Source: Rhizomonospora bruguierae (lineage in GTDB: Bacteria > Actinomycetota > Actinomycetes > Mycobacteriales > Micromonosporaceae). From it: 64,000 nt of DNA. The position numbers and the translations under genes are program-made. Below are positions 3,939-55,753 of this stretch, piece by piece. How positions within the stretch are numbered: the first letter of the stretch is position 1; every line of letters starts with the position of its first letter. The notes below the pieces were generated by a model that was not told where the DNA came from, ran no database searches, and was given only the letters and a program-made list of their open reading frames with translations. The stretch is taken from positions 294,987 through 358,986 of the forward strand of contig NZ_BBQH01000010.1 of the NCBI RefSeq assembly GCF_018397995.1, written 5' to 3'.

Positions 3939-5220
3939 GCGGTCCGGGTCCACGCGGCCACCGCGCGGCCGCCCGTACGACTTCGTCGCCGTGGGGCTGG
4001 GCCCGTTCAACCTCGGGCTGGCCTGCCTGACCGAGCCGATCGGGGACCTGGACGGCGTGTTCCTGGAGCGCCGCGACGGCCACGACTGGCACCCCGGCAT
4101 GCTGCTGGAGGGCAACACCCTCCAGGCGCCGTTCCTGGCCGACCTGGTGACGCTCGCCGACCCCACCTCGCCGTACTCGTTCCTCAACTACCTCAAGCAC
4201 ACCGGCCGGCTGTACCCGTTCTACCTCCGGGAGAGCTTCTTCCCGCTGCACGGCGAGTACGTGGACTACTGCCGCTGGGCGGCGAACCGCCTGACGTCCG
4301 TCCGGTTCGGACAGAATGTCGAGGCCGTCGAGCACGACGCGGGGGTCTACCTGGTACACACAAAGGACGTCACGTACCGGGCGCGGCGGCTGGTGCTCGG
4401 TACCGGCACGCCGCCCAACCTGCCCGAGCCGTGCCAACGGCTGGGCGGGGAGGTCGTGTACGGTTCCGGGTATCTGGCGGCCAGGGCTGCGCTGCGCGGC
4501 AAGCGGAGCATCACCGTGGTGGGCAGCGGGCAGAGCGCCGCCGAGATCTTCTACGACCTGCTCCAAGGCGCGCCGGAGGCCGGGTACGAGGTGGCCTGGG
4601 TGACCCGCTCCCCCTCGCCCGAACACCCGGACTACTTCCACGCGCTGCCGGCCGGCGTGCGCGACCGGCTCGGCACCGCGCAGAAGCAGTTGTCCGAGGA
4701 GATTGACGCCGACCTGGTCAACGCCATCTGCGGCCTGCTGTACCCGCAGAGCGTGGGCGGCCCGGTCCACGCCCGACTGATGACCAACACCGCGGTCGTC
4801 GGCACCCACCCGACCGGCGGCGGGTACACGTTGGACCTGCGCCACGAGGAGCACGGCGAGCGGTTCTCCCTGCACACCGAGGGCCTGGTGCTCGCGACCG
4901 GCTACCGGTACGAGGTACCGCCCTTCCTGGCGCCGATCGCCGACCGGATCGCCCGGGACGCCGAGGGCCGGTTCGCGGTCCGCCGCGACCACCGGGTCGA
5001 CGGCGCCGGGCCGCCGATCTACGCGCAGAACGCCGAACCGTACCCGCCCGGCTTCGTCGCGCCCGACCTCGGCATGGGTGCCTACCGCAACTCCTGCGTC
5101 ATCCGGGACATGCTCGGCCGCGAGCACTACCCGGTCGAGCGGTCGATCGCCTTCGGGGAGTTCGGCGCGCCCCGCATGCGGGAGCCCGATGCGCGGGAGC
5201 GGGAGGTGGTGCCGGCATGA
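3925..5220 (+). CDS. Lysine/diamine N-hydroxylase, siderophore type (IucD/DesB-like)
   Basis: This 431-residue FAD- and NADPH-dependent monooxygenase should hydroxylate the terminal amine of lysine or cadaverine for a hydroxamate siderophore. The FAD motif G-L-G-P-F-N-L-G-L is at about residue 27. The family motif F-F-P-L-H-G-E-Y-V-D-Y is near 110, the NADPH motif G-S-G-Q-S-A-A-E-I near 197, and D-Y-F-H-A-L-P near 235. TTG at 3925 has AGGAGG five bases upstream. The gene lies 165 bp downstream of an IdeR-type box and overlaps the acetyltransferase by ATGA. The decarboxylase (DesA) and NIS synthetase (DesD) of a desferrioxamine cluster are not next to it. Substrate choice between lysine and cadaverine cannot be read from the sequence. 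Confidence 0.92.
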   Translation: MPPSERSGSTRPPRGRPYDFVAVGLGPFNLGLACLTEPIGDLDGVFLERRDGHDWHPGMLLEGNTLQAPFLADLVTLADPTSPYSFLNYLKHTGRLYPFYLRESFFPLHGEYVDYCRWAANRLTSVRFGQNVEAVEHDAGVYLVHTKDVTYRARRLVLGTGTPPNLPEPCQRLGGEVVYGSGYLAARAALRGKRSITVVGSGQSAAEIFYDLLQGAPEAGYEVAWVTRSPSPEHPDYFHALPAGVRDRLGTAQKQLSEEIDADLVNAICGLLYPQSVGGPVHARLMTNTAVVGTHPTGGGYTLDLRHEEHGERFSLHTEGLVLATGYRYEVPPFLAPIADRIARDAEGRFAVRRDHRVDGAGPPIYAQNAEPYPPGFVAPDLGMGAYRNSCVIRDMLGREHYPVERSIAFGEFGAPRMREPDAREREVVPA

Positions 5221-5753
5221 ACCGCGTCGTGTTCAGTCGCACGGACGAACTCGGCGAGTTCGCGCTGCGCCCGGTCGAGCCGGCCGACACGGCCCTGCTG
5301 CACGGCTGGCTCACCCACCCCAGGTCCGCGTACTGGCTGATGCTGGAGGCCACGCCGGAGGAGGTGGCCAAGGAGTGCGAGGGCTCGCTGCTCGGGCTGC
5401 ACGGCGGCCGGCCGGCGTTCCTCGCGCAGCGGTACGACCCGCGCCCCGACCTCGGCCACCTCTACCCGGCCGAGGACGGCGACGTGGGCATGCACTTCCT
5501 GGTCGCGCCCGCCGGGACGCCGGTGCACGGGTTCACCCGCGCGGTCCTCGTCACCGTGATGGCGGCCCTGTTCGCGGACCCGGCGGCGCGACGCGTCGTC
5601 GTGGAGCCCGACGTGCGCAACACCGCGGTGCACCGGCTCAACGCGTACGTCGGCTTCCGGGTGCTCGGCCGGGTCCGGCTGCCGCACAAGGAGGCGCTGC
5701 TGAGCGTGTGCACGCGGGCCGACTTCGAGGCCGCGACCGAGGGGGCGCGATAA
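5217..5753 (+). CDS. GNAT acyltransferase for hydroxamate formation (DesC/RhbD-like)
   Basis: This 178-residue enzyme should transfer an acyl group from acyl-CoA to an N-hydroxylated amine. It has the siderophore acetyltransferase pattern: R-P-V-E-P-A-D near 18, L-H-G-W-L-T-H-P near 29, P-A-F-L-A-Q-R-Y-D-P near 64, H-G-F-T-R-A near 105, R-V-V-V-E-P-D-V-R-N near 127 and a closing L-P-H-K-E-A-L-L. ATG at 5217 overlaps the hydroxylase stop (ATGA), with GGAGG upstream. The pair would make N-acyl-N-hydroxylamine units from lysine or cadaverine. Acyl specificity (acetyl or succinyl) is not visible. Confidence 0.9.
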   Translation: MNRVVFSRTDELGEFALRPVEPADTALLHGWLTHPRSAYWLMLEATPEEVAKECEGSLLGLHGGRPAFLAQRYDPRPDLGHLYPAEDGDVGMHFLVAPAGTPVHGFTRAVLVTVMAALFADPAARRVVVEPDVRNTAVHRLNAYVGFRVLGRVRLPHKEALLSVCTRADFEAATEGAR

Positions 5754-5765
5754 CCGCCCCCTCGG
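5737..5765. terminator. Hairpin terminator with stop codon in the loop
   Basis: CCGAGGGGGCG (5737-5747) pairs perfectly with CGCCCCCTCGG (5755-5765) around the seven-base loop CGATAAC. The loop contains the acyltransferase stop codon (5751-5753). It lies between convergent genes and could end transcription from both sides. No U-tract follows, as is common in actinomycetes. Confidence 0.75.
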
Positions 5766-5771
5766 GGCCAA

Positions 5772-7307
5772 CTACCGGGCGGCGGGGAGGGTGCGTTGCC
5801 AGAGGGTGGCGCCGTCCAGGTCGTTCAGGCGGACGGTCAGCGCCCGGGAGTGCGCGTCGATGTCCACCTGGCCGAAGTGCTGGAAACCCTCCATCGGGGA
5901 CGCGTTGGAGCGCGGCGGGGCGTGCACGAACACCGCCTCGGGGCCGAACGTCGCGTCCAGCGTGTTGGGGCCGAAGGCGCCCGCGTTCGCCGGTCCGGAG
6001 ACGAACTCCCAGAACGGCGTGAACTCCCCGACCGCCGCCCGGGACGGGTCGTAGTGGTGCGCGGCCGTGTAGTGGACGTCCGCGGTGAGAAAGACGATGC
6101 CGGTGACCCCGGCCCGGTGCGCCGCGCGCAGGATCTCGGCGAACTCCAGTTCCCGGCCCAGCGGCGTGCCCGGGTCGCCCTGCGCGACGCCCTCCTGGGT
6201 GCCGGGGCCGTCCGGTACCACGAGGCCGAGCGGCAGGTCGTTGGCGATGATCTTCCAGGTGGCCCGGGAGGCGGCCAGCTCGCGGATCAGCCACGCCCGC
6301 TGCCGCGCGCCGAGCAGGCCGCGCCGCGGGTCGGCGTAGACGTTGGCGTCGTTCGGGTCCTTGTAGGTGCGCATGTCCAGGCGGAACACGTCCAGCAGCG
6401 GCCCGTAGGAGATCTTGCGGTAGATCGGGCCGGCGCTGATCGGCACCCACTCCAGGAACGCCTGCTTCGCGCGGGCGGCGAGCACGTCCACCCGCTTCTC
6501 GGTGTACCGGTCGTCCGCCAGGATCTGCCCGGGGTACCAGTTGTTGAGCACCTCGTGGTCGTCCCACTGGTTCAGCTGGGGCACCTCGGCGGCGAAGGCG
6601 CGCAGGTTCGCGTCCATCAGGTTGTACGCGTACTGGCCGCGGTACTCGGCGAGCGTCTCGGCCACCTTGCTCTTGGCCTCGGTGGTGAGGTTGCGCCAGA
6701 TCCGGCCGTCGGGGAGGGTGGCGGTCTCGGGGATGGGGCCGTCGGCGTAGACGGTGTCACCGCTGCACAGGTAGAAGTCCGGCCGCACGTCCCGCATCGC
6801 CCGGAAGATGCGCATGCCGCCGACGTCGGGGTTGATGCCCCAGCCCTGCCCGCTGATGTCGCCGGTCCACACGAAACGGATCCCCTTGTGCTCGTGGGGG
6901 ATCGACAGGCTGCCGGTGAGCGGCGCGCTGGTCAGCCCGTTGTCGCCGGCGACGCTGACCCGGTAGTACAGCCGATGCCCGGAGCCGCCCCGGACGGGTA
7001 CCCGGAGCTTGCCGGTGAAGTCGGTGGCGGCCGTCATCACCGGGCCGCGCAGGCGGTGCGCGCCCTTGAAGTCGGGGCGGTGGCTCAGGTCGACGAGGAG
7101 GCGGCCGGGGCGGTCGGCCCGGGTCCAGAGGGTGGCGGCGCCGCCGAACGCGTCGCCGCTCTGCACGCCGTGGGTGAGCAGCGGCCGTCCACTGGGGACG
7201 AACGCCGCGGCACGGCCGGAGAACAGGGTCGAGGCGGTGGCGGCGCCGAACGCGGCCGCGGCCGAGGTGCCCAGGAGCCGGCGCCGGCTCCACTGTCCAG
7301 AGTTCAT
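5772..7307 (-). CDS. phoD: Tat-exported alkaline phosphatase/phosphodiesterase PhoD
   Basis: This 511-residue secreted metalloenzyme should release phosphate from phosphodiesters or monoesters outside the cell. A twin-arginine signal S-R-R-R-L-L-G begins at residue 7 and is followed by a hydrophobic segment ending near 35. A PhoD N-terminal Ig-like domain spans about 40-135. The metal centre motifs follow: W-T-G-D-I near 147, C-S-G-D-T-V-Y-A-D near 182, N-Q-W-D-D-H-E-V near 252 and T-A-D-V-H-Y near 410. Length is typical. A 123-bp region upstream separates it from the ABM gene; I see no PHO box in it. Confidence 0.93.
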   Translation of the reverse strand: MNSGQWSRRRLLGTSAAAAFGAATASTLFSGRAAAFVPSGRPLLTHGVQSGDAFGGAATLWTRADRPGRLLVDLSHRPDFKGAHRLRGPVMTAATDFTGKLRVPVRGGSGHRLYYRVSVAGDNGLTSAPLTGSLSIPHEHKGIRFVWTGDISGQGWGINPDVGGMRIFRAMRDVRPDFYLCSGDTVYADGPIPETATLPDGRIWRNLTTEAKSKVAETLAEYRGQYAYNLMDANLRAFAAEVPQLNQWDDHEVLNNWYPGQILADDRYTEKRVDVLAARAKQAFLEWVPISAGPIYRKISYGPLLDVFRLDMRTYKDPNDANVYADPRRGLLGARQRAWLIRELAASRATWKIIANDLPLGLVVPDGPGTQEGVAQGDPGTPLGRELEFAEILRAAHRAGVTGIVFLTADVHYTAAHHYDPSRAAVGEFTPFWEFVSGPANAGAFGPNTLDATFGPEAVFVHAPPRSNASPMEGFQHFGQVDIDAHSRALTVRLNDLDGATLWQRTLPAAR

Positions 7308-7390
7308 GCCCTGGGTTGTAGCGAGCCCCGGTGGCCGGCCGGTGAACGCCGGCCGAGGCGGGCCTGGCGCGTACCGGTCAGCCGATCATC

Positions 7391-52593: not shown

Positions 52594-52599
52594 TACAAT
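52594..52599 (+). promoter_or_regulatory. Strong -10 box before the STAND gene pair
   Basis: TACAAT at 52594-52599 is a near-consensus -10 in otherwise GC-rich DNA, 42 bp before the start at 52641. CAGTCG at the -35 spacing (17 bp) is poor, so an activator may be needed. Confidence 0.45.
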
Positions 52600-52640
52600 C
52601 CAGGCCGCCGGAGTCACTCCACGTGGGAAGGCCGTCCCTT

Positions 52641-53000
52641 ATGCCACGTCGCCGTCGAGTCTGGGTCTGGACCGGACGGAGTGTCGCCACGCTGTGCGTC
52701 GCCGGCCTGGGCGGCTACCTGTACCTCGTCGGGCTGGACAAGGCCGACAAGGTGGCCAGTGCCATCGCCAGCCTGATCGCGGTGGCCGCGCTGGTCGCGC
52801 CGTACCTGCTGCCGGCACGCGGTCAACCCTCGGATCCGCGACCACGGCCGGGCGGCCCCGAAGGGGCCACCGCCATCCAGGTCACCGGCGATGTGCGGGT
52901 TCTGGCCAAGGGCACCAGCGCGGCCGCGGTCTCCATGCGGGACGTGACCGTTGGCGCGGTTCCCGTGGACCCTCCCCCGCCGGGGCGGTCCCGCGACTGA
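52641..53000 (+). CDS. Small two-helix membrane partner of the STAND NTPase
   Basis: This 119-residue protein has a basic head, two membrane helices (about residues 10-27 and 35-55), a Pro/Arg-rich linker, and a short tail with V-R-V-L-A-K-G-T-S-A-A-A-V-S-M. That tail segment resembles the N-terminus of the next protein, L-V-I-T-A-S-G-G-S-V-A-A-Q-H-I, with A, G, S, A and A at matching places. No family is recognised. ATG at 52641 has GGAAGG nine bases upstream, and a good -10 box lies 42 bp upstream. It probably tethers or senses for the STAND protein; this is inference. Confidence 0.7.
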   Translation: MPRRRRVWVWTGRSVATLCVAGLGGYLYLVGLDKADKVASAIASLIAVAALVAPYLLPARGQPSDPRPRPGGPEGATAIQVTGDVRVLAKGTSAAAVSMRDVTVGAVPVDPPPPGRSRD

Positions 53001-53116
53001 CCGCGCCCGGTGACGCCGCTTCATCGTCGCCCCACCACCACGTACCGGCAGAGCCCGCCCGCGCGCCTGTCGCCGATGCCACCGACCACACCGCGCCGGC
53101 GGAATCGGGCGCGGGG

Positions 53117-55753
53117 TTGGTCATCACGGCGAGCGGCGGGTCCGTCGCCGCCCAACACATCGATCAGGTGCACTATTACCAGCCGGGGAGGGCGGTGTCC
53201 TGGCCGCAGCGGGTCGGCGACATCCCGGTCCTGGCGTCGGCGTTTCAACCCCGTACCGGCCTGCGCGCGCACATTGGGGCCGCCCGCGGCGATGGGGGCA
53301 CGGTAGTGCTCACCCAGGTCCTTTCCGGCGGCGGCGGGGTGGGCAAGTCGCAGCTGGTCGCCTCCTACGCGGTGCGGGCCATCGCCGAGGGCACCGACCT
53401 GGTGGTGTGGGTCAACGCCGCCAGACCCGAGGCGATACCGGCCGCCTTCGCCCAAACCGCGGCCCGGGTGCAGGCGCCCGGGGCGGACGGCGGCGACGCC
53501 GAGGCCGACGCCAGGGCGTTGCTGGACTGGCTGGCCACCACGGACCGGTCGTGGCTGGTCGTGTTGGACGACCTGAGCGACGCCGCCCACGTCGGTGCCT
53601 GGTGGCCGGCCAGCCACACCGGCACCGGCTGGGTGCTGGCCACGACCCGCCGCCGGGACGCCGCGTTCTCCGGTGGCGGACGCTCCATGGTGGACGTCGA
53701 CGTGTACAGCGCGGACGAGTCCGCCGGCTACCTCGCCGAGCGGCTGTCCGGCGCCGGCGCGGCCCACCTGCTCGATGCCGGCGTCGGGCCCCTCGCTGAG
53801 GAACTGGGGCGGCTGCCGCTGGCCCTGTCCCACGCCGCCGCCTACATGATCAATGAGAACATCGGCTGCACGGAGTACCTCGCCCTGGTCACCGACCGGC
53901 GATCACGACTCGATGCGGTGCTGCCGCCCAGCGCCGACGCCGACGGTTACCGCCGCCCCGTCGCGGTCACCCTGCTCCTCGCCGTCGACGCGGCCCAGGC
54001 GTGCGACCCCGCGGGCCTCGCCCTACCGGCGCTGCGGCTGGCCGCCGCGCTCGACCCCGCCGGCCACCCCGACACGCTGTGGACCGAGAGCGCTGTCACC
54101 ACCTACCTGAGCGCCCACCGCACCACCGACAGCCCCGATCCACCACCCGTCACCGGTGCCGAGGCCCGCGCGGCGATGCGGCTCCTGCACCGCTACGGGC
54201 TGGCCACCCACGACCCGAGGCCCGGACCGCGTGCGGCACGCGTCCACGCCCTCACCGCCCGGGCGGCCCGCGAAGCCACCCCACCGGCGCAGTGGGCAGC
54301 CATCGCGCACGCTGCCGCGGACGCGCTGCTGGCCGCCTGGCCGGACCCGGACACCAGCCCGGACCTCGCCGACCTGGTCGCCGCGCTGAGAGCCAACACC
54401 GACACCCTCACCGCCCACGCCGGTGACCTGCTCTGGCAACCCGACGGGCAGCCACTGCTGTACCGGGCCGGCGACAGCCTCCTGGACGCCGGCCTGCACG
54501 ATGCCGCCACCACCCACTGGCAGAAGCTGGTCGCGTCGGCCGAGCGGACCCTCGGCCCGGACCACCCCGCCACCTTGTCCGCCCGGGCCCGTCTCGCCAA
54601 GGCCCATCGGCAGGCCGACCGCCTCGCCGAGGCCATCACCATCCAGGAAGGGGTGGCCACCGACCGCGAACGCGTCCTCGGCATCGAACACCCGGACACG
54701 CTGAGGGCACGGGACAACCTGGCCACGTCCTACTGGCAGATCGGGCGCGTCGGCGAAGCAATCGCCCTGATGGAGCGAGTGGTCACCGACATGGAGCGGG
54801 TTCTCGGCCCCGAAGATACGGACACGCTGGCCGCCTGGACGAATCTCGCCCTCTCCTACGGGAAGGTGGGGCGTACGGCTGAGGCCATCGCCATCCAGGA
54901 GCGGGTGGTCACCGATGCCGAACGGATCGTCGGCCCGGACGACATCGACGCCTTGTTCGCCCGGGCCATTCTCGCCGCCTTCTATCGGGAGGTGGGGCGC
55001 ACCGCCGAGGCCATTGTCATCGAGGAGCAGACGGTCGCCAGCGCCCAGCGGCTCCTCGGGCCCGAAAACCCGTCCACGCTGATTGCCCGGGCCAACCTCG
55101 CCGCCTCGTACGAGCAGGCCGGGCGCGTCGACGATGCCATCGCCGTGCAGGAGCGGGTGGCCGCGGACAGCGAACGCCTGTTCGGCCCCGAAAGTCCGAA
55201 GACGTTGAGCGACCGGTCGATCCTCGCCACCTTCTACCGGAATGTGGGCCGCACCGCCGAAGCCATCACGCTCTTCGAGCGGGTGGCCGCCGACCGGGAA
55301 CGCCTGTTCGGCCCCGAACACCCGGAAACGCTGACCGCCCGGGGCAATCTGGCCTCCTCCTACCAGAAGGCGGGGCGCACCACGGAGGCGACCACCATCA
55401 TGGAACGGTTGGTTACCGACATGGAGCGGATCCTCGGCCCGGAGCACCCTTACACGCTGACCTCGCGAGCCATCCTCGCCGCCTGCTATGAGCAGGCCGG
55501 GCGCGTCGACGAAGCCATCGCTGTTCAGGAACAGGTGGTCGCGGACCGGGAACGCATTCTTGGCACCGAACACCCGGAAACGGTGGCCGCCCGCAGCGAT
55601 CTGGCCACCTCCTACCAGAACACGGGGCGCACCTCGGAGGCGATCACCATCATGGAGCGGGTGGTGGCCGACCGCGCGCGGATTCAGGGGGCCGAACACC
55701 CGGACGCGACGGCAGCGGCGGCCATCCTGCGCGAGTGGAGGCAGGATGTCTGA
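53117..55753 (+). CDS. STAND (NB-ARC) NTPase with kinesin-light-chain-type TPRs
   Basis: This 878-residue protein has an NB-ARC-like NTPase at about residues 40-300: Walker A S-G-G-G-G-V-G-K-S with K77, Walker B W-L-V-V-L-D-D at about 146-152, T-T-R-R-R near 178 as sensor 1, and G-R-L-P-L-A-L-S-H-A-A as the GxP motif. A winged-helix/linker region spans 300-440, then nine 42-residue TPR units and a partial tenth. Such NLR-like proteins act as regulated switches in signalling, development or phage defence. The start is unsure: TTG 53117 is conventional but lies at the edge of a conserved motif; a CTG at 52997 would overlap the previous stop as CTGA. Confidence 0.9.
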   Translation: MVITASGGSVAAQHIDQVHYYQPGRAVSWPQRVGDIPVLASAFQPRTGLRAHIGAARGDGGTVVLTQVLSGGGGVGKSQLVASYAVRAIAEGTDLVVWVNAARPEAIPAAFAQTAARVQAPGADGGDAEADARALLDWLATTDRSWLVVLDDLSDAAHVGAWWPASHTGTGWVLATTRRRDAAFSGGGRSMVDVDVYSADESAGYLAERLSGAGAAHLLDAGVGPLAEELGRLPLALSHAAAYMINENIGCTEYLALVTDRRSRLDAVLPPSADADGYRRPVAVTLLLAVDAAQACDPAGLALPALRLAAALDPAGHPDTLWTESAVTTYLSAHRTTDSPDPPPVTGAEARAAMRLLHRYGLATHDPRPGPRAARVHALTARAAREATPPAQWAAIAHAAADALLAAWPDPDTSPDLADLVAALRANTDTLTAHAGDLLWQPDGQPLLYRAGDSLLDAGLHDAATTHWQKLVASAERTLGPDHPATLSARARLAKAHRQADRLAEAITIQEGVATDRERVLGIEHPDTLRARDNLATSYWQIGRVGEAIALMERVVTDMERVLGPEDTDTLAAWTNLALSYGKVGRTAEAIAIQERVVTDAERIVGPDDIDALFARAILAAFYREVGRTAEAIVIEEQTVASAQRLLGPENPSTLIARANLAASYEQAGRVDDAIAVQERVAADSERLFGPESPKTLSDRSILATFYRNVGRTAEAITLFERVAADRERLFGPEHPETLTARGNLASSYQKAGRTTEATTIMERLVTDMERILGPEHPYTLTSRAILAACYEQAGRVDEAIAVQEQVVADRERILGTEHPETVAARSDLATSYQNTGRTSEAITIMERVVADRARIQGAEHPDATAAAAILREWRQDV
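54551..55684 (+). repeat. Nine 126-bp repeats encoding TPR units
   Basis: Nine in-frame units of exactly 126 bp encode 42-residue TPRs of the form L-G-P-E-H-P-x-T-L ... A-x-S-Y ... G-R-x-x-E-A-I ... E-R-V-x-x-D-x-E-R. A tenth partial unit ends the protein. Units differ at many codons, so this is an old array under selection, though the strict period would let copy number change. Confidence 0.9.

What the first reader, a model, noticed from the sequence alone, without database searches (positions are those of the whole stretch)
52594..55753. Two-gene STAND/TPR system with a small membrane partner sharing a motif
A two-helix membrane protein and an NB-ARC NTPase with nine strict 42-residue TPRs lie together behind a consensus -10. 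The tail of the first and the head of the second share a pattern, V/I-x-A-x-G-x-S-x-A-A-x-x-M/I, like a homotypic contact motif. This could be a membrane-anchored NLR-like sensor or defence switch. The sequence does not show what it senses or does.
Basis: partly seen in the sequence, partly recalled or inferred. Interest (0 to 1): 0.7.

Follow-up and report, generated by a model that had tools for sequence, protein, structure and literature searches.

The report
Membrane hairpin paired with NLR-like switch
Two neighbouring genes in an actinobacterium encode an immune-type molecular switch and a tiny membrane hairpin protein; relatives suggest the switch triggers the hairpin through a short shared motif, as in known bacterial and fungal amyloid death signalling, though in this particular pair the shared motif is too blurred to be proved.

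Summary
The two genes are real: a 119-aa protein with a two-helix membrane hairpin (52641-53000) and a STAND/NB-ARC-like NTPase with nine exact 42-residue TPRs (to 55753).

Relatives rescue the idea in another form. The hairpin is a family, found in 30 of 300 sampled Micromonosporaceae genomes. In 36 of 41 testable pairs hairpin tail and neighbour head share a motif; 0 of 20000 permutations reach the observed total. All 31 other pairs with a P-loop neighbour are significant; the window is the exception. Motif types differ between pairs. This is the two-gene architecture of NLR-associated amyloid signalling (BASS), with a membrane hairpin where Bell-like proteins stand in other pairs. One relative fuses hairpin and NTPase. 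The window NTPase probably starts at CTG 52997, at the usual 4-nt overlap.

Most likely: NTPase assembly clusters or templates the hairpin's tail and disturbs the membrane. Inferred: trigger, amyloid formation and death were not tested. New variant of a known kind; the window pair is a diverged member.

The parts
52594..52599 (+). TACAAT, -10-like hexamer without a recognisable -35
   Evidence: sequence; scan finds no sigma-70 site
52641..53000 (+). small two-TM hairpin protein, 119 aa (P0001)
   Evidence: family profile A1; homologues
52647..52730 (+). helix 1 of hairpin (residues 3-30)
   Evidence: AlphaFold model
52743..52808 (+). helix 2 of hairpin (residues 35-56); the conserved GLDKADK stretch overlaps its start
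   Evidence: sequence; not significant in this pair
52997..55753 (+). STAND/NB-ARC-like TPR NTPase; start inferred as CTG 52997 (overlaps stop TGA 52998-53000); alternative start TTG 53117
   Evidence: 4-nt overlap in 26 of 41 other pairs
   Evidence: sequence; weak 8-residue match to the DSG-class profile, reached by 4 of 2000 shuffles
53327..53350 (+). Walker A (GGGGVGKS)
   Evidence: sequence
53555..53572 (+). Walker B (LVVLDD)
   Evidence: sequence
54557..55690 (+). nine 42-residue TPR units (126-bp tandem array)
   Evidence: 16 PDB matches, kinesin-light-chain-type TPRs

Best explanation
A two-gene NLR-type signalling cassette. The STAND NTPase senses a cue, probably through its TPR superhelix, and oligomerises. 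Its N-terminal segment, in the cytosol, then clusters or templates the cytosolic C-terminal tail of the co-translated membrane hairpin through a short homotypic, probably beta-arch (amyloid-type) motif. The hairpins gather and perturb the membrane, giving dormancy or cell death, plausibly against phage. Shown by computation: the gene pair, the usual 4-nt overlap, tail/head motif matching across the family, exchange of hairpin, Bell-like and fused N-terminal parts, and a hairpin-NTPase fusion. Inferred: oligomerisation, amyloid nature, membrane damage, defence role and trigger. In the window pair itself the motif has diverged, so its coupling is inferred from relatives.
For: 36 of 41 pairs share a tail/head motif at shuffle p<0.05; mean own score 54.2 against 33.1 permuted, 0 of 20000 permutations; still 0 of 20000 with one representative of the commonest class (27 pairs). 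Of pairs whose neighbour has a P-loop pattern, 31 of 31 other than the window are significant. Motif types differ between pairs. 4-nt overlap in 26 of 41 other pairs. Hairpin and NTPase are one 873-aa ORF in L059 (hairpin profile 65 bits). NTPases of the same family pair with Bell-like proteins (L169, L170, L179), and 1 of 20 Bell-like proteins with a P-loop neighbour carries the DSG motif class found on 16 hairpins (L194). Basic N-terminus and unstructured C-terminal tail fit a cytosolic motif. Reviews describe motif-sharing NLR/effector gene pairs in actinobacteria (PMC7889193 passages).
Against: The window pair is the only pair with a P-loop neighbour whose motif match is not significant (p=0.88). 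Profiles of seven motif classes give no robust joint assignment: a six-sequence DSG profile scores both sides (1 of 500 shuffles each), but a fuller DSG profile scores only the head (4 of 2000 shuffles; 2 of 66 sequences of other classes score as high) and not the tail (1404 of 2000). A CTG start would be unusual. No defence domain among ten flanking ORFs scanned with Pfam. Hairpins also occur without an adjacent large gene: seven of 49 loci had no downstream ORF of 200 aa or more in range (one of these, L059, is the fusion).
Confidence: 0.55

Rival explanations
1. The hairpin is a membrane anchor or receptor half, not an executioner: it recruits the NTPase to the membrane and the output lies elsewhere.
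For: Several hairpin proteins carry long further parts after the hairpin, by eye with extra TM or extracellular-like stretches (L034, L041, L045, L049, L051), as a receptor would. Fusion of hairpin to NTPase fits anchoring as well as effector action.
Against: The hairpin's slot is taken by Bell-like proteins, another 2-TM protein or a fused N-terminal domain in NTPase relatives, which is how effectors swap. No other output domain is seen in the window NTPase.
Confidence: 0.25
2. The window pair is a decaying or rewired member: the tail/head contact is lost and the NTPase may act alone or with an unlinked partner.
For: Motif match absent; probable start changed to CTG; two close NTPase homologues have a head motif but no small hydrophobic upstream partner passed the filter (L165, L166).
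Against: Both ORFs are open, with Walker motifs and nine exact TPR units. Tail and head keep a similar glycine/alanine-rich pattern at the expected places (ungapped core p=0.026).
Confidence: 0.2
3. An FxSxx-COOH peptide-system regulator (FxsT), as NCBI's model would name it.
For: NF040586 scores 424 bits against a cut-off of 300.
Against: No FxsB maturase over its cut-off in the own genome; three weaker matches to that model only. A plasmid NTPase next to a hairpin gene, P0004, also passes NF040586 at 381 bits (a second, P0006, scores 229 and does not), so the model reaches NTPases of hairpin pairs.
Confidence: 0.04

Closest known systems
NLR/Bell amyloid-signalling gene pairs with BASS motifs (Dyrka et al. 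2020, paper not held; described in PMC7889193, PMC8086366, PMC9815663, passages read)
   Same: Adjacent or overlapping genes in multicellular actinobacteria; motif at the NLR N-terminus and the effector C-terminus; many motif families, sometimes in two or three copies; several effector domains.
   Different: Effector is a two-TM hairpin of about 65 aa, unrelated to the Bell-like profile (hhalign probability 0.2%). Amyloid formation untested. The window motif matches no class robustly.
Fungal NLR/HET-S and HELLP amyloid signalosomes
   Same: Receptor head motif templates an effector tail motif; effectors target membranes (abstract starts and passages).
   Different: No sequence relation shown; different effector domain; bacterial TPR-type sensor.
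Antiphage STANDs (Avs, bacterial NLR-related proteins)
   Same: STAND NTPase; such proteins protect against phage (PMC12881547 passage).
   Different: Effectors there are usually fused (recalled); no PADLOC model hit here; trigger unknown.
FxSxx-COOH system TPR protein (NF040586)
   Same: Match above the model cut-off.
   Different: No FxsB over cut-off in the genome; partner is a membrane hairpin.

Membership tests
STAND/NB-ARC TPR NTPase | P-loop NTPase with Walker A/B, plus TPR array | tested here: met
   NB-ARC E=2e-4 (21.2 bits, under the 23.5 cut-off), TPR_10 E=1.7e-83; NF040586 424 bits; Walker motifs by eye
NLR-associated amyloid signalling pair (BASS architecture) | adjacent or overlapping receptor and effector genes | tested here: met
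   window: genes adjacent, 4-nt overlap if CTG is the start; 26 of 41 other pairs overlap by 4 nt
NLR-associated amyloid signalling pair (BASS architecture) | motif shared between NLR head and effector tail, family level | tested here: met
   36 of 41 pairs; 0 of 20000 permutations
NLR-associated amyloid signalling pair (BASS architecture) | motif shared in the window pair itself | tested here: inconclusive
   p=0.88 whole tail/head; 0.071 and 0.026 for chosen cores; profile tests disagree
NLR-associated amyloid signalling pair (BASS architecture) | motif belongs to one of BASS1-10 | not testable with these tools
   published profiles not held
NLR-associated amyloid signalling pair (BASS architecture) | motif forms amyloid / prion-like foci | not testable with these tools
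   needs experiment
Bell domain effector | Bell-type helical domain | tested here: not met
   hairpin profile against Bell-like profile: probability 0.2%; the Bell-like set was recognised from description and memory, not from a curated model
FxSxx-COOH system | FxsB radical-SAM maturase present | tested here: not met
   0 matches over cut-off in own genome (genome 98% complete, 182 contigs)
Known antiphage defence system | match to PADLOC model | tested here: not met
   0 families for both proteins

The most novel reading that the evidence does not exclude
A previously undescribed class of minimal executioner: about 65-residue two-TM hairpins, widespread in filamentous actinobacteria, wired to NLR-type receptors by private, fast-diverging amyloid-type 'passwords'. 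The window pair would carry a new password class outside the seven motif types profiled here, so that co-existing cassettes stay insulated from each other.
Probability: 0.3. Interest if true: 0.7.

Novelty: new variant of a known kind. Interest (0 to 1): 0.5.

Why it matters
If right, NLR-linked amyloid-type signalling in bacteria reaches beyond Bell, CHAT and TIR effectors (the three named in the review passage read) to a tiny membrane hairpin, small enough to synthesise, mutate and study in vitro. The dozens of naturally matched tail/head pairs listed here would make specificity and insulation of homotypic signalling motifs directly testable.

Tried and rejected
Rejected: FxsT role. Rejected: hairpin as a Bell domain. 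Rejected: literal motif as a family signature. Rejected: assignment of the window motif to the 'AVGG' class: tail reached by 51 of 500 shuffles, head not reported by the search; with a smaller profile tail 160 of 500, head 96 of 500. A 'GAGDI' class from plasmid pairs: head 22 of 500, tail 139 of 500. Of the other classes, 'QIG' (three sequences) gave tail 5 of 500 and head 7 of 500, which I did not follow up; 'QHN' 43 and 298, 'VRDV' 40 and 269, 'QAGRD' 30 and 366. The commonest class, 'DSG', looked good with six sequences (1 of 500 on both sides) but failed for the tail with the fuller profile. With seven classes tried, I count no assignment as shown.

Led nowhere: no hairpin relative in viral contigs (one scan with P0001); no Rfam match or tRNA in the window; the STAS-gene search (matches in 5 of 61 genomes, the own one included) was not followed to neighbourhoods; the genus search saw only the own genome. 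An earlier pair test (38 loci tried, seven without a P-loop gene downstream, then L044, L063 and L071 dropped by hand, 28 left) gave 53.3 for own pairs against 31.5 for mismatched ones, 0 of 20000; one search supersedes it.

Selection: the 49 loci were chosen by hand. Of 41 places viewed, eleven were left out (second place of L035; L056, L058, L060, L062, L063, L064, L066, L068, L071, L072: other protein families, contig end, or distant or no downstream partner). L088 (same small protein as L035), L182, L103 (same small protein as L097), L104 and other weak hits were also left out; three plasmid pairs (L215, L216, L218) and the window were added. All 49 match the hairpin profile, at 16 to 114 bits, but the profile's founders are among them. 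Of 49, seven had no downstream ORF of at least 200 aa in range, and L041 was dropped for length, leaving 41; no two share an identical 60-residue tail, but relatedness was reduced only by the one-representative control. The choice favours loci that look like pairs, so 36 of 41 is not a genome-wide rate; the permutation test compares only within the set. Non-significant pairs besides the window: L047 (0.74), L048 (0.41), L053 (0.80), L061 (0.054); none of these four neighbours meets the P-loop pattern.

Not done: defence-island statistics, complex prediction (no multimer tool), comparison with published BASS profiles (paper not held). One of two structure jobs and no fold search were used.
Full report
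WHAT IS THERE. Its family is Micromonosporaceae: a same-family genome, G103, holds a 45,124-base contig that matches Plantactinospora endophytica NZ_BONW01000052.1 in length and hairpin protein. Two genes lie on the + strand: P0001, 52641-53000, 119 aa, and an NTPase ending at 55753. AlphaFold with 13 sequences gives P0001 helices at 3-30 and 35-56 and an unstructured tail (mean pLDDT 66, pTM 0.33). The N-terminus is basic (5 K/R in 14 residues), which suggests both ends in the cytosol (positive-inside rule, established knowledge). The NTPase has NB-ARC-like signal (21.2 bits, cut-off 23.5) and ten TPR_10 stretches. Nine consecutive units of exactly 42 residues were printed from the sequence. 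The 16 PDB matches cover the TPR part and are kinesin-light-chain-type TPRs.

START OF THE NTPASE. Among 41 other hairpin loci with a testable downstream ORF, 26 overlap by exactly 4 nt and 37 start within -31 to +5 nt. In the window the codon at that place is CTG 52997, whose TG begins the TGA stop of P0001. The next standard start downstream is TTG 53117. By homology CTG is the likely start (inferred). Both starts keep the head motif.

The pattern V/I-x-A-x-G-x-S-x-A-A-x-x-M/I is in both window proteins and in none of the 48 other hairpin proteins or 41 other neighbour heads. Tail against head: Smith-Waterman 22, shuffle p=0.88, row rank 33 of 41. With hand-cut cores: p=0.071, and 0.026 for the best ungapped 18 residues. 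Seven motif-class profiles were tried. The best joint hit (a six-sequence DSG profile, 1 of 500 shuffles on each side) did not survive a fuller profile for the tail (1404 of 2000), while the head kept a weak eight-residue match (4 of 2000; 2 of 66 sequences of other classes score at least as high). In this pair the shared motif is suggestive at best.

THE FAMILY. The hairpin profile A1 (23 sequences, core GLDKADK between the helices) finds matches in 30 of 300 genomes of the family at E<=1e-8, and in 14 of 298 of the order and 12 of 394 of the class at E<=1e-5; each count includes the own genome, and the weakest hits may not be true members. Named carriers include Micromonospora tarensis, Plantactinospora endophytica, Streptomyces, Actinoallomurus, Microbispora and Actinomadura (12 loci), and plasmids of Verrucosispora sp. 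NA02020, Kitasatospora purpeofusca and Streptomyces sp. NBC_01213 (profile scores 112, 25 and 18 bits). One scan of viral contigs found no relative. Of 49 hand-selected loci, the window included, 32 have a P-loop pattern in the downstream ORF; 22 of the 31 others overlap it by 4 nt.

MATCHED, PRIVATE MOTIFS. Of 41 testable pairs, 36 share tail and head sequence at p<0.05. Mean own score 54.2, permuted mean 33.1 (sd 1.5); 0 of 20000 permutations reach the observed value. With the 15-member commonest class reduced to one representative, 27 pairs give 54.4 against 30.9, again 0 of 20000. Examples: L092 VSSSSVSGSNIQIGQAGGSVRI with VSDSQIGGHNVQIGFAGGDVNV; L042 VNLGGTNTQHNSF with INVGGTNTQHNTF; L094 HNEISGGTIHGPVIQGHT with RNTISGGLFLSAVIQGHT. 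Tail and head lie in different, non-homologous proteins, so the match is best explained by a contact that must be kept. All 31 other pairs with a P-loop neighbour are significant; the window is the exception.

EFFECTOR EXCHANGE. In a sample of 121 genomes the closest NTPase homologues (58-66% identity, seven besides the window) carry a hairpin (two: L055/L140, L038/L141), another 2-TM small protein with a QHN-type motif (two, L168), a fused N-terminal domain that looks TIR/SEFIR-like by eye (one, L167; no profile run), or no partner passing the script's filter (two, L165, L166). More distant homologues have Bell-like partners (L169, L170, L179) or, by eye, fused membrane segments (L175-L178). 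A Bell-like query matched in 35 of 150 genomes at E<=1e-6. Of 20 Bell-like proteins with a P-loop neighbour, one (L194) carries the DSG motif class seen on 16 hairpins. In L059 hairpin (65 bits to A1) and NTPase are one ORF of 873 aa; a weaker case is a Streptomyces sp. A144 plasmid gene, L223 (10.7 bits). 'Bell-like' rests on the published description and memory; no curated model was available. Hairpin and Bell-like profiles are unrelated (probability 0.2%).

MECHANISM. Inferred: STAND activation, probably by a ligand of the TPR array, clusters the heads; heads template or bind hairpin tails; hairpins cluster and disturb the membrane. Reviews report amyloid motifs in actinobacterial NLR/Bell gene pairs, and foci or prion-like behaviour of some of these motifs in a fungal host (passages of PMC7889193 and PMC9815663). 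None of this was tested for hairpins. What is positively supported is a receptor/effector-type pair with a homotypic motif at family level; amyloid is the most likely form of the contact, not a shown one.

KNOWN OR NEW. The architecture is that of NLR-associated amyloid signalling (Dyrka et al. 2020; paper not held). The review passage names Bell, CHAT and TIR as partners. Seven literature searches listed no paper whose title or abstract start describes a two-TM hairpin with such motifs; most subscription papers and bioRxiv preprints are missing from the library, so this is weak. One caution: a characterised Streptomyces atratus BASS3 motif spans residues 70-124 of its protein (PMC9815663 passage), so short N-terminal effector domains, perhaps even hairpins, may already be in the published BASS set. 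I could not check this. Papers were seen as passages found by terms (PMC8086366, PMC7889193, PMC12261475, PMC7159879, PMC8195603, PMC9815663, PMC12881547), none in full.

CONTEXT. Ten flanking ORFs were scanned with Pfam: MFS transporter, polysaccharide deacetylase, a cupin (below its cut-off), STAS, epimerase, cation efflux, peroxidase (KatG-like), FtsX-like permease, and two without a match. No PADLOC match for the pair (flanking ORFs not scanned with it). GC content of the pair, 70-75% per kb, is in the range of its surroundings. Defence-island enrichment was not tested.

VERDICT. Good catch of architecture; not borne out in detail for the motif; a diverged member of a family-level system that is a new variant of a known kind.

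Noticed in passing
L059 (G209), 4738-7359 of the reverse strand: Hairpin and NTPase fused in one 873-aa ORF without a clear shared motif.
   Followed up: yes
L040 (G101), downstream of the hairpin gene: A DSG-type head motif (p=0.002) on a protein with a membrane segment and no P-loop pattern, next to a hairpin with the same motif: a possible non-NLR receptor.
   Followed up: partly
L044 (G103): Downstream 1416-aa ORF with a DSG-type head motif, then a stretch that looks trypsin-like by eye, then a P-loop.
   Followed up: no
L041, L045, L034, L049, L051: Hairpin proteins with long additional C-terminal parts; in L041 and L045 a QHN-type motif lies between the hairpin and the rest. No P-loop neighbour was found in the range searched.
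   Followed up: partly
L167 (G030): NTPase 65% identical to the window's with a fused N-terminal domain that looks TIR/SEFIR-like instead of a motif.
   Followed up: no
L215 (Kitasatospora purpeofusca plasmid): Two tandem related NTPase genes after one hairpin gene, with very similar head motifs.
   Followed up: partly
L218, L219, L224 (Streptomyces plasmids): Records label such NTPases 'fxsT'; in L218 the neighbour is a hairpin gene and no other FxSxx genes are listed in the stretch, suggesting over-reach of NF040586.
   Followed up: partly
window 54557-55690: Nine TPR units of equal length as a 126-bp tandem array (67% matches), a likely site for repeat-number change.
   Followed up: partly
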